64,000 nucleotides of DNA from Pasteurella canis (GTDB taxonomy: Bacteria; Pseudomonadota; Gammaproteobacteria; Enterobacterales; Pasteurellaceae), in assembly GCF_900454865.1 (NCBI RefSeq), contig NZ_UGTV01000015.1, forward strand, positions 372,001 to 436,000, in the 5' to 3' direction. A program made the translations under genes and the position numbers. How positions within the stretch are numbered: position 1 is the first letter of the stretch; every line of letters starts with the position of its first letter. Below, one piece after another: positions 46,830 through 53,370 of this stretch. The notes under the pieces are model-generated. The model had not been told where the DNA came from. It was given only the letters and a program-made list of their open reading frames with translations, and did not search any database.

Positions 46830-48224
46830 TTATTTTAAGCTTCCCACCATATCTTCTGGACGAACCCACTCATCAAATTGTTCAGCGGTGACTAAACCTA
46901 AATTGATCGCTTCTTCTTTTAATGTCGTGCCATTTTTATGGGCTGTTTTAGCAATTTTTGCTGCATTTTCATAACCAATATGCGTATTCAGTGCAGTGAC
47001 TAGCATTAAAGATTGCTCTAACTGTTGTTTAATACGCGGATAGTTTGGCTCAATACCTATAGCACAATGTTCATCAAATGATACACAAGCATCACCTAAT
47101 AGTTGTGCAGATTGTAAAAAGTTAGCTGCCATGACAGGTTTATACACGTTGAGTTGGAAATGACCTTGTGTACCAGCAAATGAAATTGTCACATCATTAC
47201 CTAATACTTGTGCACAAACCATTGTCATTGCTTCACACTGTGTTGGGTTAACTTTACCTGGCATAATAGAAGAACCTGGTTCATTTTCAGGAATTAAAAT
47301 TTCGCCAATACCAGAACGAGGGCCTGAAGCTAAAAGGCGAACGTCATTAGCAATTTTGTACAATGACACAGCAAGTTGTTTTAAGGCACCATGTGTTTCG
47401 ACAACTGCATCATGTGTTGCTAAAGCTTCAAATTTATTTTGTGCAGTCACAAAAGGTAAGCCTGTAAATTCAGCAATATAGTTTGCGACTTTAACATCAT
47501 AACCTTTTGGTGTATTTAAGCCAGTCCCTACTGCAGTACCGCCTAATGCTAATTCAGCTAAGTGTGGTAGGGTGTTTTCTAATGCTTTAATACCAAAAGA
47601 GAGTTGTGCAGCATAAGCAGAAAACTCTTGACCTAATGTTAATGGAGTGGCATCCATTAAGTGTGTACGTCCAATTTTTACCACATCTTGGAATGCTGCT
47701 GCTTTTTCCGCTAATGTTTTTTGTAAACGTTTGACACATGGTAGAGTATGCTCAACGACTTTTTTATAGGCTGCAATGTGCATTGCTGTTGGGTAGGTAT
47801 CATTTGATGACTGTGATTTATTTACATCATCATTGGGATGAATAATTGACTTTTCACCCAATTTTCCACCATTAAGTACATGTGCTCGATTCGCAACAAC
47901 TTCATTCACGTTCATATTAGATTGTGTACCTGAACCTGTTTGCCAAATCACGAGTGGAAATTGATCATCTAATTTTTTTGCTAAGATTTCATCACAGGCT
48001 TGGGCAATTAAATCGCGTTTCTCTAAAGGTAATACACCTAAATCATGGTTCGCATAAGCTGCTGCTTTTTTCAGATAACCAAAGGCTTCGATAATTTCTT
48101 GTGGCATGGAAGCTTCAGGTCCAATTTTAAAATTATTACGAGAGCGTTCAGTTTGTGCAGCCCAGTATTTATCGGCAGGTACTTGTACTTCGCCCATAGT
48201 GTCTTTTTCGATACGGAATGTCAT
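46830..48224 (-). CDS. fumC: Fumarate hydratase class II
   Basis: Iron-independent fumarase (464 aa) interconverting fumarate and malate. Landmarks are [56 protein letters not shown] and the superfamily signature [15 protein letters not shown]. The start at 48224 ([13 protein letters not shown]) has AGAGGTAA upstream; the frame extends to 48275 without homology. A near-perfect CRP-like site lies about 100 bp upstream. Single-copy context; class I fumarase is not in the window. Confidence 0.97.
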
Positions 48225-48321
48225 AGTGTTACCTCTTGTTGAAAAATATAAAAATGAATAATGAAATTCTAACACTTGAGTGTTATTTGTGGAACGCTAT
48301 GCCTCAAGCAAAACTTGGTTT

Positions 48322-48337
48322 TGTGATTTAGATCATA
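48322..48337 (-). promoter_or_regulatory. CRP-like site between fumC and holC
   Basis: TGTGATTTAGATCATA fits TGTGA-N6-TCACA at 9 of 10 arm positions. It is about 100 bp upstream of fumC and 124 bp upstream of holC. No -10 element falls at a class II distance in either direction, so the target is uncertain; fumC is the likelier one by function. Confidence 0.4.
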
Positions 48338-48460
48338 AAGTGCGGTTTGTTTTATAAAAGTTTTGAAAAAACTAAAGTGAAAAGTCGCAATGACTTTATC
48401 TTCGCATGCTTTTTCGTTAGAATCCTACAGTTATACCTTTTATAAAGGATTTATTGCAAA

Positions 48461-48889
48461 ATGTCTAAAAATGCGCAATTTTACTTGTTAAATACTGATG
48501 CTCAAGCTGAAAAAATAGCTTGTGATTTAGCTGCTTCTGCATGGCGTTTAGGTAAACGAGTTTTAATTGCTTGTGAAACGGAACAACAAGCATTAGATAT
48601 TGATGAAGCACTTTGGGCGAGAGAGCCTGATGAGTTTGTTCCTCATAATTTATCTGGTGAAGTGACAACATATGCAACCCCAATCGAGATCAGTTGGAAA
48701 GGAAAGCGGAATGCACAACGACGAGATTTATTGATCAACTTACAAGTTGCAGTACCAGATTATATTGGAAGCTTTAATCAACTGATCGATTTTGTTCCTG
48801 TTGAAGAGCATCTAAAAGTTTTAGCAAGGGAACGTTATAAACAGCTTCGACAACTTGGTTGGACATTATCGACAGAACAGATGAAATAA
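48461..48889 (+). CDS. holC: DNA polymerase III chi subunit
   Basis: Chi subunit of the clamp loader (142 aa), which links the replicase to SSB on lagging-strand DNA. Features are AQFYLLNTDAQAEKIACDLAASAWRLGKRVLIACE, ALWAREPDEFVPHNLSGE and YIGSFNQLIDFVPVEEHL, standard for HolC. AAAGGA precedes the start. In many gamma-proteobacteria valS follows directly; here 1.6 kb of other DNA lies between. Confidence 0.94.
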   Translation: MSKNAQFYLLNTDAQAEKIACDLAASAWRLGKRVLIACETEQQALDIDEALWAREPDEFVPHNLSGEVTTYATPIEISWKGKRNAQRRDLLINLQVAVPDYIGSFNQLIDFVPVEEHLKVLARERYKQLRQLGWTLSTEQMK

Positions 48890-48900
48890 AGAGAGATAAC

Positions 48901-49353
48901 ATGAAACTAGCTGAAGCTCTTATGCAGCGAGCAGATGCACAGCGTCGCCTTGCACAACTGAATCAACGCTTACAACAAAATGCAAAATATCAAGAGGGTG
49001 AAAAACCAGCAGAAAACCCGATAGAGCTATTGATGGAATATCGCCAAGTTGCAGATAGTTTAGAAAAATTAGTAGTACAAATCAATCAAACGAATAACCT
49101 AATAGCCCTATCAAATGGGATGAAAATGGTAGAAGCTCTTGCAAAACGCGATCGCTTGAAAGATGAGCATTCTGCGCTGATTAAGCTAGCAGAATCAGCT
49201 TTACCAGAGCAAGATCGTTATAGCCGTAGTGAAATTAAAATGCTTTCTGCGGTAGATATTAAAGCAATTCGTCAACAAGCAGATCAGGTTGCTAAAGCAC
49301 ATCGTGAACTTGATGTGTTTATTCAGCAAGCAAATTGGCAATACGATTTGTAG
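48901..49353 (+). CDS. DIP1984 family protein
   Basis: Soluble helical protein, 150 aa, resembling the DIP1984 (septicolysin-like) family, of unknown function. Family-like stretches are KLAEALMQRADAQRRLAQLNQRL, NPIELLMEYRQVADSLEKLVVQINQTN and MVEALAKRDRLKDEHSALIKLAESA. Almost entirely alpha-helical, with heptad patterns but no membrane segment or signal peptide. The start at 48901 has AAGAGAGA upstream and is 11 bp from the holC stop; a possible start at 48859 overlaps holC. Probably co-transcribed with holC. Confidence 0.78.
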   Translation: MKLAEALMQRADAQRRLAQLNQRLQQNAKYQEGEKPAENPIELLMEYRQVADSLEKLVVQINQTNNLIALSNGMKMVEALAKRDRLKDEHSALIKLAESALPEQDRYSRSEIKMLSAVDIKAIRQQADQVAKAHRELDVFIQQANWQYDL

Positions 49354-49375
49354 AAAGTGCGGTTCGTTTTAGGTA

Positions 49376-49513
49376 TTTTTAGTCAGGGGCGAACACAAAA
49401 CACACTCATGGGAACGAAGAGCCGTTCATTTCTCTGAACAACTTCTGCTCCGTACAAGTGAAATCGTACAAAAACATTGTACTGTAACAACCCTGTGTTG
49501 ATCTGACTAAAAA
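49376..49513. mobile_element. 138-bp element with terminal inverted repeats (MITE-like or structured RNA)
   Basis: Bounded by a perfect 11-bp inverted repeat, TTTTTAGTCAG (49376-49386) and CTGACTAAAAA (49503-49513), with weaker pairing beyond (GAACACA against TGTGTTG). Inside are a hairpin GAAG...GTTCA / TGAAC...CTTC (49416-49445) and three GTAC copies (49452, 49466, 49479). It is visibly richer in G+C than its surroundings and codes for nothing convincing. No target-site duplication is seen, so a structured leader RNA is an alternative to a transposon remnant. Confidence 0.5.
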
Positions 49514-49560
49514 TGGGTGGGATAGGGGATTTAATCTGATGAATAGAAGAGGACAAGATT

Positions 49561-50058
49561 ATGAGTAAAATTACATTGGCTGGCACAGAAATTGAGGTTG
49601 CAGGCGTATTTCCACAAGTTGGCGATGTGGTTGCAGATTTCACTACAGTGAGTGCAAAATTAGAGGACACCACTTTAGCAAGCTTTGCTGGTAAACGTAA
49701 AATTTTAAACATTTTCCCAAGTATTGATACGGGTATTTGTGCGACATCCGTACGAAAATTCAATGAGCAAGCATCAAAATTAACAAATACCGCTGTATTA
49801 TGCCTTTCAGCAGACTTACCATTTGCTCAAACACGTTTTTGTGGTGCAGAAGGACTTGAAAATGTTGTGACACTATCGACTTTTCGTAATAAAGCAGTTC
49901 ATCAGCAATTAGGGGTGGATATAACAGAGGGACCGCTAGCAGGTTTAACGGCACGTGCAGTGATTGTGTTAGATGAAAATAACTGTGTATTGCACAGCGA
50001 GTTAGTCTCTGAAGTCAAGCAAGAGCCGAATTATGAAGCAGCTTTAGCTGTTTTATAA
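49561..50058 (+). CDS. tpx: Thiol peroxidase Tpx
   Basis: Periplasm/cytoplasm-type 2-Cys peroxiredoxin of the Tpx subfamily, 165 aa, reducing alkyl and hydrogen peroxides with thioredoxin. The peroxidatic Cys60 is in [14 protein letters not shown] and the resolving Cys94 in [15 protein letters not shown], the Tpx spacing. There is no signal peptide, so it is cytosolic. AGAGGA precedes the start. The 138-bp inverted-repeat element lies directly upstream, where it could affect expression. Confidence 0.96.
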
Positions 50059-50224
50059 ACTCTGCTATAGCGATAGTAGTGAGTTCAAATATTAAAAGAT
50101 GCTTTAAGTAATTAGCTTGAGCACAGCTGTATTTTTAGTAAATATTATTGATGTGATCAGCATAATAATTACTCAAATATAAATGAAAGGTAATTGTACA
50201 AAGAAATAAAACGGGAGTGAAACC

Positions 50225-50398
50225 ATGGAAATGCGTTTTTCTTGGTTAAAAATTGCGATACTTTTGGGCGGAGGTTTTTTTGCCTTCCAACAATTAGATA
50301 GAAGTAATTTTGATTTGCTTTGGTTTAGATTTAATTCACTGTTAAATCGTTATTTTTTAGATTTTATGAGTGAGTTTGATTTATTTCTTTTTTGGTAG
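50225..50398 (+). CDS. Small putative membrane protein (57 aa)
   Basis: A 57-codon ORF with a good ribosome site (GGGAG, 50213-50217, seven bases before ATG). The product begins MEMRFSWLKIAILLGGGFF, giving one hydrophobic span (about residues 6-22), then an aromatic-rich tail (LLWFRFNSLLNRYFLDF) ending in FLFW. I recognise no family. Position between tpx and valS, start signal and composition like a small single-span protein support it. It lacks a terminator of its own. Confidence 0.5.
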   Translation: MEMRFSWLKIAILLGGGFFAFQQLDRSNFDLLWFRFNSLLNRYFLDFMSEFDLFLFW

Positions 50399-50505
50399 TC
50401 AATTTATATATTAATACGCATTGAGAGCATAAACGTTCTATGCTTGTATTTAAACTTAAGAAAAAAATAGTTTAAATTAAGATTTACATCATACAGAGAA
50501 CTAAA

Positions 50506-53370
50506 ATGACAAAACAATTTGAAATGGCAGATCGTTTTACACCATCTGCAGTGGAACAGGCACTTTATAAACACTGGGAAGAAAGTGGTTATTTTAAACC
50601 GTCAGAAGATACGACAAAACCAAGTTATTCAATTGCAATCCCGCCACCAAATGTGACGGGTAGCTTACATATGGGGCACGCTTTCCAACAGACATTGATG
50701 GATATTTTAATTCGTTTCAATCGTATGGAAGGGCATAACACCTTATGGCAAACAGGCACTGATCATGCGGGTATCGCAACTCAAATGGTGGTGGAGCGTA
50801 AAATCGCTGCTGAAGAAGGGAAAACTCGTCACGATTATGGACGTGAAGCGTTCATTAATAAAATTTGGGATTGGAAAGCGTATTCAGGCGGCACGATCAG
50901 TCAGCAAATGCGCCGTTTAGGTAATTCTATCGACTGGGATCGTGAACGTTTCACAATGGACGAAGGCTTGTCTGAAGCGGTAAAAGAAGTGTTTGTTCGT
51001 TTGCACGAAGAAGGCTTAATTTATCGTGGTAAACGCTTAGTGAACTGGGATCCAAAATTACATACGGCGATTTCTGATCTTGAAGTAGAAAATAAAGAGA
51101 GCAAAGGTTCACTTTGGCATTTCCGTTATCCATTAGCAAACGGTGCGAAAACTACTGATGGTAAAGATTATTTAGTGGTGGCGACAACGCGTCCTGAAAC
51201 AATGCTAGGTGATACCGCGGTGGCAGTTCACCCTGAAGATGAGCGTTATCAGTCGCTTATCGGTAAAACTGTTGTGTTACCCTTAGCTAATCGTGAAATC
51301 CCAATTATCGCAGATGATTATGTGGATCGTGAATTTGGAACAGGTGTAGTAAAAATTACTCCAGCCCATGATTTCAATGACTACGAAGTGGGTAAACGTC
51401 ACCAATTACCAATGGTGAACGTGATGACTTTGAATGCAGATATTCGTGCTGAAGCAGAAATTATCGGTTCAGATGGCAAAATTCTTGAAAATTACACCGC
51501 ACTTATTCCAGCAAAATACCAAGGTATGGAACGTTTTGCAGCGCGTAAACAAATCGTGGCAGATTTTGAGGAATTAGGTTTATTAGACGAAATCAAACCA
51601 CATGATTTGAAAGTGCCTTACGGCGATCGTGGTGGTGTGCCAATCGAGCCAATGTTAACCGACCAATGGTATGTGAGCGTAAAACCGCTTGCTGAAGTGG
51701 CTGTGAAAGCGGTAGAAGACGGCGAAATCCAATTCGTACCAAAACAATATGAAAATCTGTATTTCTCTTGGATGCGTGATATTCAAGACTGGTGTATTTC
51801 TCGCCAATTATGGTGGGGGCACCGTATTCCAGCTTGGTATGATGAGGAAGGCAATGTATATGTGGCACGTGATGAAGATGAAGTACGCCAAAAACATAAT
51901 TTATCTGCTGATGTAGCCTTAAAACAAGATGAAGATGTGCTTGATACTTGGTTCTCATCTGGTTTATGGACATTCTCGACATTAGGTTGGCCGAAACAAA
52001 CACCTGATCTGAAAATGTTCCACTCAACAGATGTGTTGATCACGGGATTTGACATCATTTTCTTCTGGGTTGCACGTATGATTATGTTCACAATGCATTT
52101 TGTGAAAGATGAAAATGGCAAACCACAAGTACCATTTAAAACGGTGTATGTCACAGGTCTGATTCGTGATGAACAAGGACAAAAAATGTCCAAGTCAAAA
52201 GGTAATGTGATCGATCCATTAGATATGATTGATGGTATTGATCTCGAAAGCTTGTTAGAAAAACGTACTGGCAACATGATGCAGCCACAATTGGCGGAGA
52301 AAATTTCTAAAGCCACAGTTAAAGCGTTTCCAGAAGGGATTGCAGAACACGGTACCGATGCGTTACGTTTCACATTAACTGCGTTAGCGACTAATGGTCG
52401 TGATATTAACTGGGATATGAAACGCTTAGAAGGTTACCGCAATTTCTGTAACAAATTATGGAATGCAAGCCGCTTTGTTTTAACTAATGATAAATTAGAT
52501 TTGAGCGAAGGCTCTGTAGAATATTCGGTAGCAGATCGTTGGATTCAATCGGAATTTAATCGCACGGTAGACACATTCCGTAATGCCTTAGCACAATTCC
52601 GCTTTGATTTATGCGCAACTGCGCTTTATGAGTTCACTTGGAATCAATTCTGTGACTGGTATTTAGAATTGACTAAACCTGTTTTTGCCAATGGTACAGT
52701 GGCGCAAAAACGTGCTGCAAGTCAAACATTGATCAACGTGTTGGAAAAGTTATTGCGTTTAAGTCATCCTGTAATGCCATTTATTACTGAAGAAATTTGG
52801 CAAAAAGTGAAAGAGTTCGCTGGCGTAAATGGTGATACTATTATGTTGCAAGCATTCCCGAAATTTGAACAAAATGCATTGGATTATCAAGCGGAAGCGG
52901 AAATAAACTGGATGAAAGATGTGATTGTGGCGGTACGTAACATTCGTGCAGAAAGCAATATTCCACCAAGCAAAGGTTTAGATTTATTGCTGCGCAATCT
53001 TTCAGACACCGATCAAAACTCATTGGAAAACAACCGCACTTTAATTCAAGCAATGGCAAAATTGGACTCTATTCGTGTGCTCAAAGTAGATGAAAATGCG
53101 CCACTTTCTGTGACAAAATTAGTGAATAATGCTGAATTATTAGTACCAATGGCTGGTTTTATCAATAAAGAGGCTGAGCTTACTCGTCTAAATAAAGAAA
53201 TTGAAAAATACCAAGGTGAAATCCAACGTATTGAAAATAAACTTGCTAACGAGGCCTTTGTTGCCAAAGCACCTCCAGCAGTTATCGAAAAAGAGCGTGC
53301 TAAAATGGCGGAATATGCTGAAGGATTGAATAAACTCAAACAACAGTATCAGGCAATTGAAGCATTGTAA
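50506..53370 (+). CDS. valS: Valyl-tRNA synthetase
   Basis: Class Ia synthetase (954 aa) charging tRNA-Val, with editing of threonine. The HIGH motif is HMGH at 55-58 in [15 protein letters not shown], the editing CP1 domain includes [22 protein letters not shown] and [17 protein letters not shown], and KMSKS lies at about 560 ([14 protein letters not shown]). The C-terminal coiled coil ([25 protein letters not shown]) is present. The valS region is full length. Two USS occur within it. Confidence 0.98.

What the first reader, a model, noticed from the sequence alone, without database searches (positions are those of the whole stretch)
49376..49513. 138-bp inverted-repeat element directly before tpx
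A compact block with perfect 11-bp terminal inverted repeats, internal hairpins, three GTAC copies and a base composition unlike its neighbours lies in the tpx promoter region. It codes for no convincing protein. It looks like a miniature inverted-repeat element or a structured RNA leader and may be dispersed in related genomes.
Basis: seen in the sequence. Interest (0 to 1): 0.6.

Follow-up and report, generated by a model that had tools for sequence, protein, structure and literature searches.

The report
New structured RNA beside DIP1984 gene
The short repeat-flanked block before the tpx gene is not a mobile repeat but a member of an apparently uncatalogued, heavily folded RNA that sits directly behind the gene for a protein of unknown function (DIP1984) in very different bacteria, on plasmids and in viral contigs, now and then beside RNA-repair or tRNA genes, so the two probably work together.

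Summary
The block is real but belongs to the gene before it, not to tpx. A 12-bp perfect inverted repeat closes a ~157-nt structured RNA (49372-49528), single-copy, starting 18 nt after the stop of a DIP1984/DUF6847 gene. Gene-first: RNA directly downstream in 48 of 49 DIP1984-positive genomes (Pasteurellaceae 25/25, other Pseudomonadota 2/2, Cyanobacteria 4/5, Firmicutes 17/17; three by eye). RNA-first: a pattern scanned over 84,980 species genomes gives 29 hits, 28 with DIP1984 beside them. The closing helices covary: at least 11 of 13 Watson-Crick pairs in 54 of 72 loci, 6 of 720 shuffles. Two H-type pseudoknots recur (40 and 33 of 67 loci; 1.3 and 3.2 expected). G-U/A-C asymmetry (34:7), tRNA-type T-arms (15 of 47 against 0) and gene order put the RNA on the + strand, although in Pasteurella the minus strand alone folds better. 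The 3' tail keeps its G-runs while spacers vary. No Rfam match. A few neighbourhoods elsewhere hold rtcB/rtcA, a Ro60-like gene or tRNA arrays. Best reading: an RNP in which a tRNA-mimicking RNA works with DIP1984 in tRNA/RNA repair or conflict, analogous to Ro-Y RNA but with another protein. Expression, binding and function are untested.

The parts
48901..49353 (+). DIP1984-family gene (PF20935 DUF6847 / NF038048), constant partner of the RNA
   Evidence: Pfam E 6e-53, NCBIfam E 2.7e-55; AF2 model with four helices, mean pLDDT 93.5; solved relative 3kdq
49372..49528 (+). structured noncoding RNA; ends inferred from conservation, not from transcript data
   Evidence: conserved block; strand and gene order
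49375..49386 (+). P1 closing helix, 5' strand (pairs with 49503-49514)
   Evidence: family-wide pairing
49503..49514 (+). P1 closing helix, 3' strand
49389..49392 (+). conserved GCGA of the internal loop between P1 and P2
49393..49397 (+). P2 helix, 5' strand (pairs with 49494-49498)
49494..49498 (+). P2 helix, 3' strand
49499..49501 (+). conserved UGA of the internal loop
49412..49427 (+). pseudoknot A hairpin GAAC (49412-49415) / GUUC (49424-49427) with GAGC (49419-49422) in its loop; here only 8 pairs, below the cut-off of the count, so assigned by homology
   Evidence: letters; relatives
49447..49450 (+). GCUC, partner of loop GAGC 49419-49422 (second stem of pseudoknot A); by homology
   Evidence: letters; relatives
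49424..49439 (+). hairpin GUUCA-UUUCUC-UGAAC, at the place where relatives in other phyla carry a tRNA-type T-arm; overlaps the pseudoknot A stem, so the two exclude each other
   Evidence: sequence, same hairpin in the consensus fold of the complementary strand; T-arms of relatives
49515..49528 (+). G-run tail GGG-U-GGG-AUA-GGGG (possible part of a G-quadruplex)
   Evidence: GGGYGGG in 64 of 74 loci, spacers variable
49561..50058 (+). tpx, downstream neighbour in this genus only; not part of the module

Best explanation
The block is the gene of a structured noncoding RNA on the + strand, transcribed behind or with the DIP1984 gene, and it acts together with the DIP1984 protein. Shown by comparison: the RNA-gene pairing across phyla, the closing helices P1/P2, two H-type pseudoknots in about half of the loci each, tRNA-type T-arms in part of the members, a G-run tail in most, and (from several lines, none of them transcript data) the strand. 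Inferred: (1) DIP1984, a small four-helix protein, binds the RNA and forms an RNP; (2) the pseudoknot/T-arm end imitates part of a tRNA and recruits or occupies tRNA-handling enzymes (RtcB/RtcA ligase and cyclase, nucleases, modification enzymes); (3) the module helps cells, plasmids and phages to cope with tRNA or RNA damage, as has been proposed for bacterial Ro-Y RNA particles, but with DIP1984 in place of, or beside, Ro. Probability of the first part (real + strand RNA functionally tied to DIP1984) about 0.95; of the tRNA/RNA-repair role about 0.5.
For: RNA pattern scan: 29 loci, 28 with DIP1984 beside (for L052 and L053 the gene lies beyond the locus end and is known). DIP1984-first: 48 of 49 genomes (with 61, 74, 79). 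Family: RNA model hits in 22 of 25 DIP1984 genomes and 0 of 115 others. P1+P2: at least 11 of 13 Watson-Crick pairs in 54 of 72 loci against 6 of 720 dinucleotide shuffles put through the same search; P1 425 of 495 cells against a mean of 160 with partners shuffled among loci. G-U 34 against A-C 7 read on the + strand, p 2.5e-5. T-arms 15 of 47 on +, 0 on -, 0.14 expected. Pseudoknots 40 and 33 of 67 loci, 1.3 and 3.2 expected. Same strand in rtcB-DIP1984-RNA-rtcA of Acinetobacter and DIP1984-RNA-rtcB of a cyanobacterium; Ro60-like gene 7 nt before DIP1984 in another cyanobacterium; tRNA arrays in Leptolyngbya-type genomes and 18 tRNA genes before it on a 100-kb viral contig.
Against: No expression or binding data were available. 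In the window's genus the minus strand folds better than the + strand (z -4.28 against -2.12) and no T-arm passed the test in 25 Pasteurellaceae loci. A first, looser strand count gave G-U 42 against A-C 21. RtcB is absent from every DIP1984-carrying Pasteurellaceae genome (present in 1 of 140, which lacks DIP1984) and TROVE/Ro from all 140, so these partners are not needed there. Repair-type neighbours were seen in few loci: RtcB in 2 of those held, by phmmer. One cyanobacterium (L120, only 220 bases to the contig end) and one viral contig (L164) have DIP1984 with no RNA in view.
Confidence: 0.6

Rival explanations
1. RNA-antitoxin system: DIP1984 is a toxin (some records label it 'septicolysin') and the pseudoknotted RNA keeps it inactive, as in type III toxin-antitoxin pairs; this would explain plasmid and phage carriage.
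For: Pairing of one small protein gene with one pseudoknotted RNA; sporadic distribution; DIP1984 on 370 plasmid records, 342 of them Acinetobacter; viral contigs.
Against: The RNA lies after, not before, the protein gene and is single, not a repeat array; no PADLOC model matches at E up to 1; the only confident structural match is the family's own 3kdq; conserved in all six same-genus genomes; DIP1984 without visible RNA exists (L164, perhaps L120).
Confidence: 0.15
2. Cis element: the structure is a 3' untranslated region that stabilises the DIP1984 message or lets the protein regulate its own message, with no role in trans.
For: It starts 18 nt after the stop here; across loci the GCGA of the RNA lies 18 to 96 nt after the stop in most, on the same strand.
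Against: About 150-200 nt with two pseudoknots, T-arms and conserved loops is more than a stabiliser or simple autoregulatory site usually needs (inference); in Enterococcus faecium a terminator-like hairpin follows the tail, so a complete domain would be transcribed (by eye), which does not by itself exclude a cis role.
Confidence: 0.15
3. A minus-strand small RNA starting near 49528, divergent from tpx, with its C-rich 5' end CCCCUAUCCCACCC as a pairing seed.
For: Better single-sequence fold of the minus strand in the window; AT-rich stretch just before the C-runs in Pasteurella.
Against: G-U/A-C 34:7 for +, T-arms only on +, gene order with rtcB and rtcA, terminator-like hairpin on + in E. 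faecium, no consistent -10 box before the C-runs across genera (by eye).
Confidence: 0.05
4. Miniature inverted-repeat element.
For: Perfect terminal inverted repeat.
Against: Single copy, fixed position behind DIP1984, arms that differ between genomes but stay complementary.
Confidence: 0.01

Closest known systems
Bacterial Y RNA (YrlA, Rfam RF02553) with Ro60/Rsr in rsr-yrlBA-rtcBA operons
   Same: A small structured RNA next to the gene of a partner protein, with a tRNA-imitating part; beside rtcB/rtcA in two lineages here and once beside a Ro60-like gene. Operon facts from PMC7790460 (passages read).
   Different: No YrlA match over the RNA; the constant partner is DIP1984; no TROVE gene in 140 Pasteurellaceae genomes; two H-type pseudoknots and a G-run tail (not recalled for YrlA; not tested).
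Type III toxin-antitoxin RNAs (ToxI type; features recalled)
   Same: Protein gene paired with a pseudoknotted RNA; plasmid and phage carriage.
   Different: RNA behind the gene, single copy; no PADLOC match for the protein.
tmRNA (features recalled)
   Same: Several pseudoknots and a T-arm in one RNA.
   Different: No tmRNA model match over the RNA and no ARAGORN tmRNA there.
3kdq, Corynebacterium diphtheriae protein of unknown function
   Same: Same protein family as DIP1984 (E 1.5e-51; TM 0.89 on the model).
   Different: Titled as functionally unknown; no RNA named in the title.

Membership tests
MITE | several dispersed copies | tested here: not met
   one copy in the own genome, one per genome in 22 of 140
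MITE | target-site duplication / empty sites | not tested
   moot with a single fixed copy
YrlA / bacterial Y RNA | match to the Rfam YrlA model | tested here: not met
   none over the RNA at E up to 1 in 16+8+12 loci or at E up to 10 in the window; one weak YrlA hit in L163 (26 bits, E 0.25) lies on tRNA genes
YrlA / bacterial Y RNA | Ro60/Rsr partner in the genome | tested here: not met
   PF05731 in 0 of 140 Pasteurellaceae genomes; not tested for the other phyla as a whole; a divergent Ro60-like neighbour in one cyanobacterium
YrlA / bacterial Y RNA | tRNA-like domain with T-arm | tested here: inconclusive
   T-arm in 15 of 47 non-Pasteurellaceae loci, at least one (L123) doubtful; 0 of 25 Pasteurellaceae under the stricter test
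Type III toxin-antitoxin | RNA repeats upstream of the toxin gene | tested here: not met
   single RNA downstream
Type III toxin-antitoxin | protein toxic without the RNA | not testable with these tools
   needs an experiment
tpx leader / riboswitch | conserved position before tpx | tested here: not met
   next gene varies: tpx, holC, valS, others
tmRNA / tRNA | match to covariance models or ARAGORN | tested here: not met
   none over the RNA
DIP1984 family (PF20935 / NF038048), for the protein | profile match above the curated cut-off | tested here: met

The most novel reading that the evidence does not exclude
A new, phylum-crossing ribonucleoprotein: a double-pseudoknot tRNA-mimic RNA whose two ends are clamped by an intramolecular G-quadruplex (5' GG plus 3' GGG-n-GGG-n-GGG, or two runs on each side as in Enterococcus), bound by DIP1984, working as a Ro-independent counterpart of Y RNA particles in tRNA repair or tRNA-directed conflict between phages, plasmids and hosts.
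Probability: 0.25. Interest if true: 0.92.

Novelty: categorically new. Interest (0 to 1): 0.8.

Why it matters
It turns a domain of unknown function, with a crystal structure from 2009, into the protein half of a protein-RNA pair seen in at least six bacterial phyla (phyla partly assigned from organism names, recalled) and in two viral contigs. The protein gene is on 342 Acinetobacter plasmid records; the RNA was checked and found in the two of these that were fetched (L091, L098). That makes the function of DUF6847/DIP1984 directly testable, adds a structured RNA class with no match in Rfam 15, and suggests that Ro-Y RNA-like particles may have a second, unrelated protein solution. The conserved G-runs also offer a natural candidate for a bacterial RNA G-quadruplex.

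Tried and rejected
MITE and tpx leader: rejected as above. Minus-strand small RNA: my first working model; alignments A2-A6 and covariance model R1 were made in minus orientation. Abandoned after the T-arm, gene-order and G-U evidence. Hits of R1 concern the same DNA, so the counts stand, but R1's structure is not the final one. RtcB as obligatory partner: rejected for Pasteurellaceae. G-quadruplex, test for a 5' GG in a fixed 10-nt window: 35 of 60 tail-bearing and 3 of 7 tail-less loci, against 0.31 per window inside the RNAs; P1 length varies, so placement is crude and the test inconclusive. Fold search: after 3kdq (Z 15.4) the next rows include TasH of TIGR systems at Z 8.8, but unrelated helical proteins score up to 8.6, so no claim. 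PHROGs: best match E 0.0012 to a family of unknown function. The RNA pattern in viral contigs: 0 matches. K-turn reading of the internal loop: did not fit (by eye). The promoter/terminator scan was not run. First T-arm test with five of five stem pairs: 7 of 42 on +, 0 on -; relaxed: 15 of 47. First strand count with five P2 pairs and a lower cut-off: G-U 42, A-C 21. The shuffled-partner control is generous, because the register was chosen for each locus to maximise Watson-Crick pairs and was not chosen anew for the shuffles; one search is the fair control. Papers: 'DIP1984' 1 paper, only listed; 'DUF6847' none; 'septicolysin' with Acinetobacter 17, only listed; passages of PMC8632094, PMC11090510 and PMC9741440 gave nothing on this RNA; two papers sought by DOI (Burroughs and Aravind 2016; Chen et al. 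2014; recalled) and PMC6182133 are not held, so prior mention there cannot be excluded.

Full report
What was checked. The region 48000-51000 reads holC (48461-48889), a DIP1984-family gene (48901-49353; PF20935 E 6e-53, NF038048 E 2.7e-55), the block, then tpx (49561-50058), all on the + strand. The inverted repeat is 12 bp and perfect; 1 of 1000 dinucleotide shuffles of the 207-bp intergenic region has one as long. Base composition is ordinary. Rfam gives nothing at gathering score for the whole window and two chance-level matches for the region at E up to 10.

Not a mobile repeat. The own genome has one copy. By DNA similarity the block is found once in each of the five other same-genus genomes and in three further genomes; with the own one, 9 of 100. 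A covariance model from eight of these nine (R1, minus orientation) finds one copy in 22 of 140 family genomes, 14 of 43 genera.

The constant neighbour is DIP1984. PF20935 is present in 25 of 140 family genomes. All 22 RNA-positive genomes are among these 25; none of the 115 others is RNA-positive. The remaining three (L068, L069, L089) also carry the RNA, read by eye and by the helix search. The gene on the other side is tpx in the own genus; elsewhere it is holC, valS or another gene.

Across phyla, from the RNA side. One pattern taken from the RNA alone, CCCCNNNCCCRCCCN{6,16}ATCAAYANNNGGTNRT (minus-strand reading), was scanned over one genome for each of 84,980 species: 29 loci. Eleven are Pasteurellaceae. 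The other 18 are Cyanobacteria, Paenibacillus, Brevibacillus, Fervidibacillus, Neofamilia, Paracoccus, Anaerolinea, a Trueperaceae, Candidatus Uabimicrobium and a Chthoniobacterales MAG. 17 of these 18 genomes have PF20935, one match each, at the RNA; the 18th (L056) is a chance match inside a reading frame. For L052 and L053 the DIP1984 gene lies beyond the end of the fetched locus; it is known (G106, same RNA and score as L052). In L044 only part of the RNA remains. PF20935 over its cut-off is rare in samples drawn by kinship: 3 of 299 Pseudomonadota, 6 of 146 in the cyanobacterial and 18 of 299 in the Firmicutes sample; the last two include the genome used as centre, which had been chosen through its RNA.

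Across phyla, from the protein side. Leaving out those two centres, the RNA lies directly downstream on the same strand in 25 of 25 Pasteurellaceae, 2 of 2 other Pseudomonadota, 4 of 5 Cyanobacteria and 17 of 17 Firmicutes genomes: 48 of 49. Three Firmicutes (L128-L130) were recognised by eye only; in one (L137) the DIP1984 match is a short fragment. The exception, L120, has only 220 bases between the gene and the contig end, so the RNA is missing at its usual place but could not be sought further. Matches below the family cut-off were not counted. Tandem DIP1984 neighbours in two Firmicutes (L140, L141) have a degenerate RNA and were left out. All eight plasmid or phage-collection records fetched (L091-L098; L094 and L095 by eye) have it; they are eight of 370 plasmid and 4 phage-collection records with DIP1984. 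Of four viral-contig loci two have it (L163, L165), L164 shows none, and L166 holds only the end of the gene (by eye).

Structure. 77 loci were taken; five were set aside beforehand (L114, L120, L138, L140, L141). The 72 left have 71 distinct sequences but include close relatives. In the same helix search, at least 11 of 13 P1+P2 pairs are Watson-Crick in 54 of 72 loci and in 6 of 720 dinucleotide shuffles; all 13 in 23 loci and no shuffle. In 67 loci with a clear result (L094, L095, L128-L130 dropped), 55 non-redundant, P1 is Watson-Crick in 425 of 495 cells against a mean of 160 (sd 11.5, maximum 194) with partners shuffled among loci, and all four Watson-Crick types occur at each of the nine positions, some in a single locus; P2 has 210 of 220 against 121. 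That second control is generous, because the register was fitted to the true partners. An H-type pseudoknot directly after P2 (at least 8 Watson-Crick pairs) is found in 40 of 67 loci, 1.3 expected from letter shuffles searched alike, with both stems changing together. A second one, a hairpin whose G-rich loop pairs downstream, is found in 33 of 67, 3.2 expected. Neither reaches the cut-off in the window's own sequence; the second is there with eight pairs. GCGA and UGA between P1 and P2 are conserved. The tail GGGYGGG is present in 64 of 74 loci (16 of the 74 came through the pattern, which demands it), with many different spacers. It is missing in the Acinetobacter, Psychrobacter and two other gammaproteobacterial loci, in the two tandem copies, in L096 (which has GGGAGGG) and in the Enterococcus faecium record, where the runs are split, GGGUGGG before P1 and GGUGGG after it. 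This suggests a G-quadruplex joining both ends; my test for the fourth run was inconclusive.

Strand. Read on the + strand, P1 and P2 contain 34 G-U and 7 A-C cells (p 2.5e-5; without Pasteurellaceae 29 and 7); on the minus strand these would swap. A looser first count gave 42 and 21. Cells of related loci are not independent. The register was chosen by Watson-Crick pairs only. tRNA-type T-arms (loop UUCRNNY) occur in 15 of 47 non-Pasteurellaceae loci on the +, none on the minus strand, 0.14 expected; several of the 15 are close relatives and L123 is doubtful. Some cyanobacterial members show a seven-base anticodon-like loop on the + strand (by eye). In Acinetobacter the order is rbn, rtcB, a 166-aa unknown, DIP1984, RNA, rtcA, all one way; in a cyanobacterial MAG DIP1984, RNA, rtcB. 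In E. faecium a terminator-like hairpin follows the tail (by eye). Against this, in the window the minus strand alone folds better (z -4.28 against -2.12).

What it probably does. DIP1984 is a small helical protein (mean pLDDT 93.5) whose only confident structural match is its own family member 3kdq, titled functionally unknown. No PADLOC model matches. A few neighbourhoods outside Pasteurellaceae point to tRNA or RNA repair: rtcB/rtcA as above; a Ro60-like protein (phmmer to TROVE-domain structures 9l5y and 9kop over residues 64-426, E 0.0049; no Pfam TROVE hit) seven bases before DIP1984 in a cyanobacterium; an RMMBL-type nuclease before it in one Firmicute; 21, 13, 4, 3, 2 and 1 tRNA genes in six Leptolyngbya-type loci; and 18 tRNA genes before it on a 100-kb viral contig. 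Most Firmicutes loci showed no tRNA nearby. Known rsr-yrlBA-rtcBA operons place a Ro protein and tRNA-like Y RNAs beside rtcB and rtcA and are induced when tRNA fragments accumulate (PMC7790460, passages read). In A. baumannii AB0057 rtcB and the gene directly downstream rise 252-fold with tigecycline (PMC7652931, passages read), and an rtcBA island is variable among strains (PMC3224125, one passage read); whether those strains carry DIP1984 there I did not test. Hence the proposal of a Y RNA-like particle with DIP1984, weighed against the absence of RtcB and TROVE proteins from the DIP1984-carrying Pasteurellaceae and the small number of such neighbourhoods.

Novelty. No Rfam 15 family matches the RNA above chance in the window or in 36 related loci. 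Full-text searches for DIP1984 and DUF6847 gave one incidental paper and none; searches on Pasteurellaceae small RNAs, Y RNAs, RtcB and structured RNAs showed nothing under these names in the listed titles and abstract openings. The library lacks most subscription papers and two that might mention the gene neighbourhood.

Noticed in passing
L163:310-4720 (viral contig, 100 kb): Eighteen tRNA genes in a row on one strand end directly before DIP1984 and its RNA, on a phage-type contig.
   Followed up: partly
L097:708-4265: Acinetobacter operon rtcB - 166-aa protein without Pfam match - DIP1984 - RNA - rtcA; the 166-aa protein may be the gene reported as co-induced with rtcB by tigecycline (guess).
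   Followed up: partly
L162:6476-7993: Divergent Ro60-like protein seven bases before DIP1984 in a cyanobacterium; no Pfam TROVE hit.
   Followed up: partly
L143, L149: Two Firmicutes genomes carry DIP1984 twice in tandem; the RNA behind one copy has lost its G-run tail.
   Followed up: partly
L095:2873-3060: Enterococcus faecium plasmid: G-runs are split two and two around the closing helix, and a terminator-like hairpin follows (by eye).
   Followed up: partly
L044 / L114: Phormidesmis MAG with only part of the RNA left behind DIP1984, a deletion or an assembly fault.
   Followed up: no
L132:2261-2435: c-di-AMP riboswitch (RF00379) just beyond the RNA of a Firmicute.
   Followed up: no
L023, L026, L029, L030, 60 bases before the match (minus orientation): DNA-uptake-type inverted repeats (AAGCGGT / ACCGCTT; motif recalled) sit directly after the G-run tail in several Pasteurellaceae and could act as terminators of the + strand RNA.
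   Followed up: no
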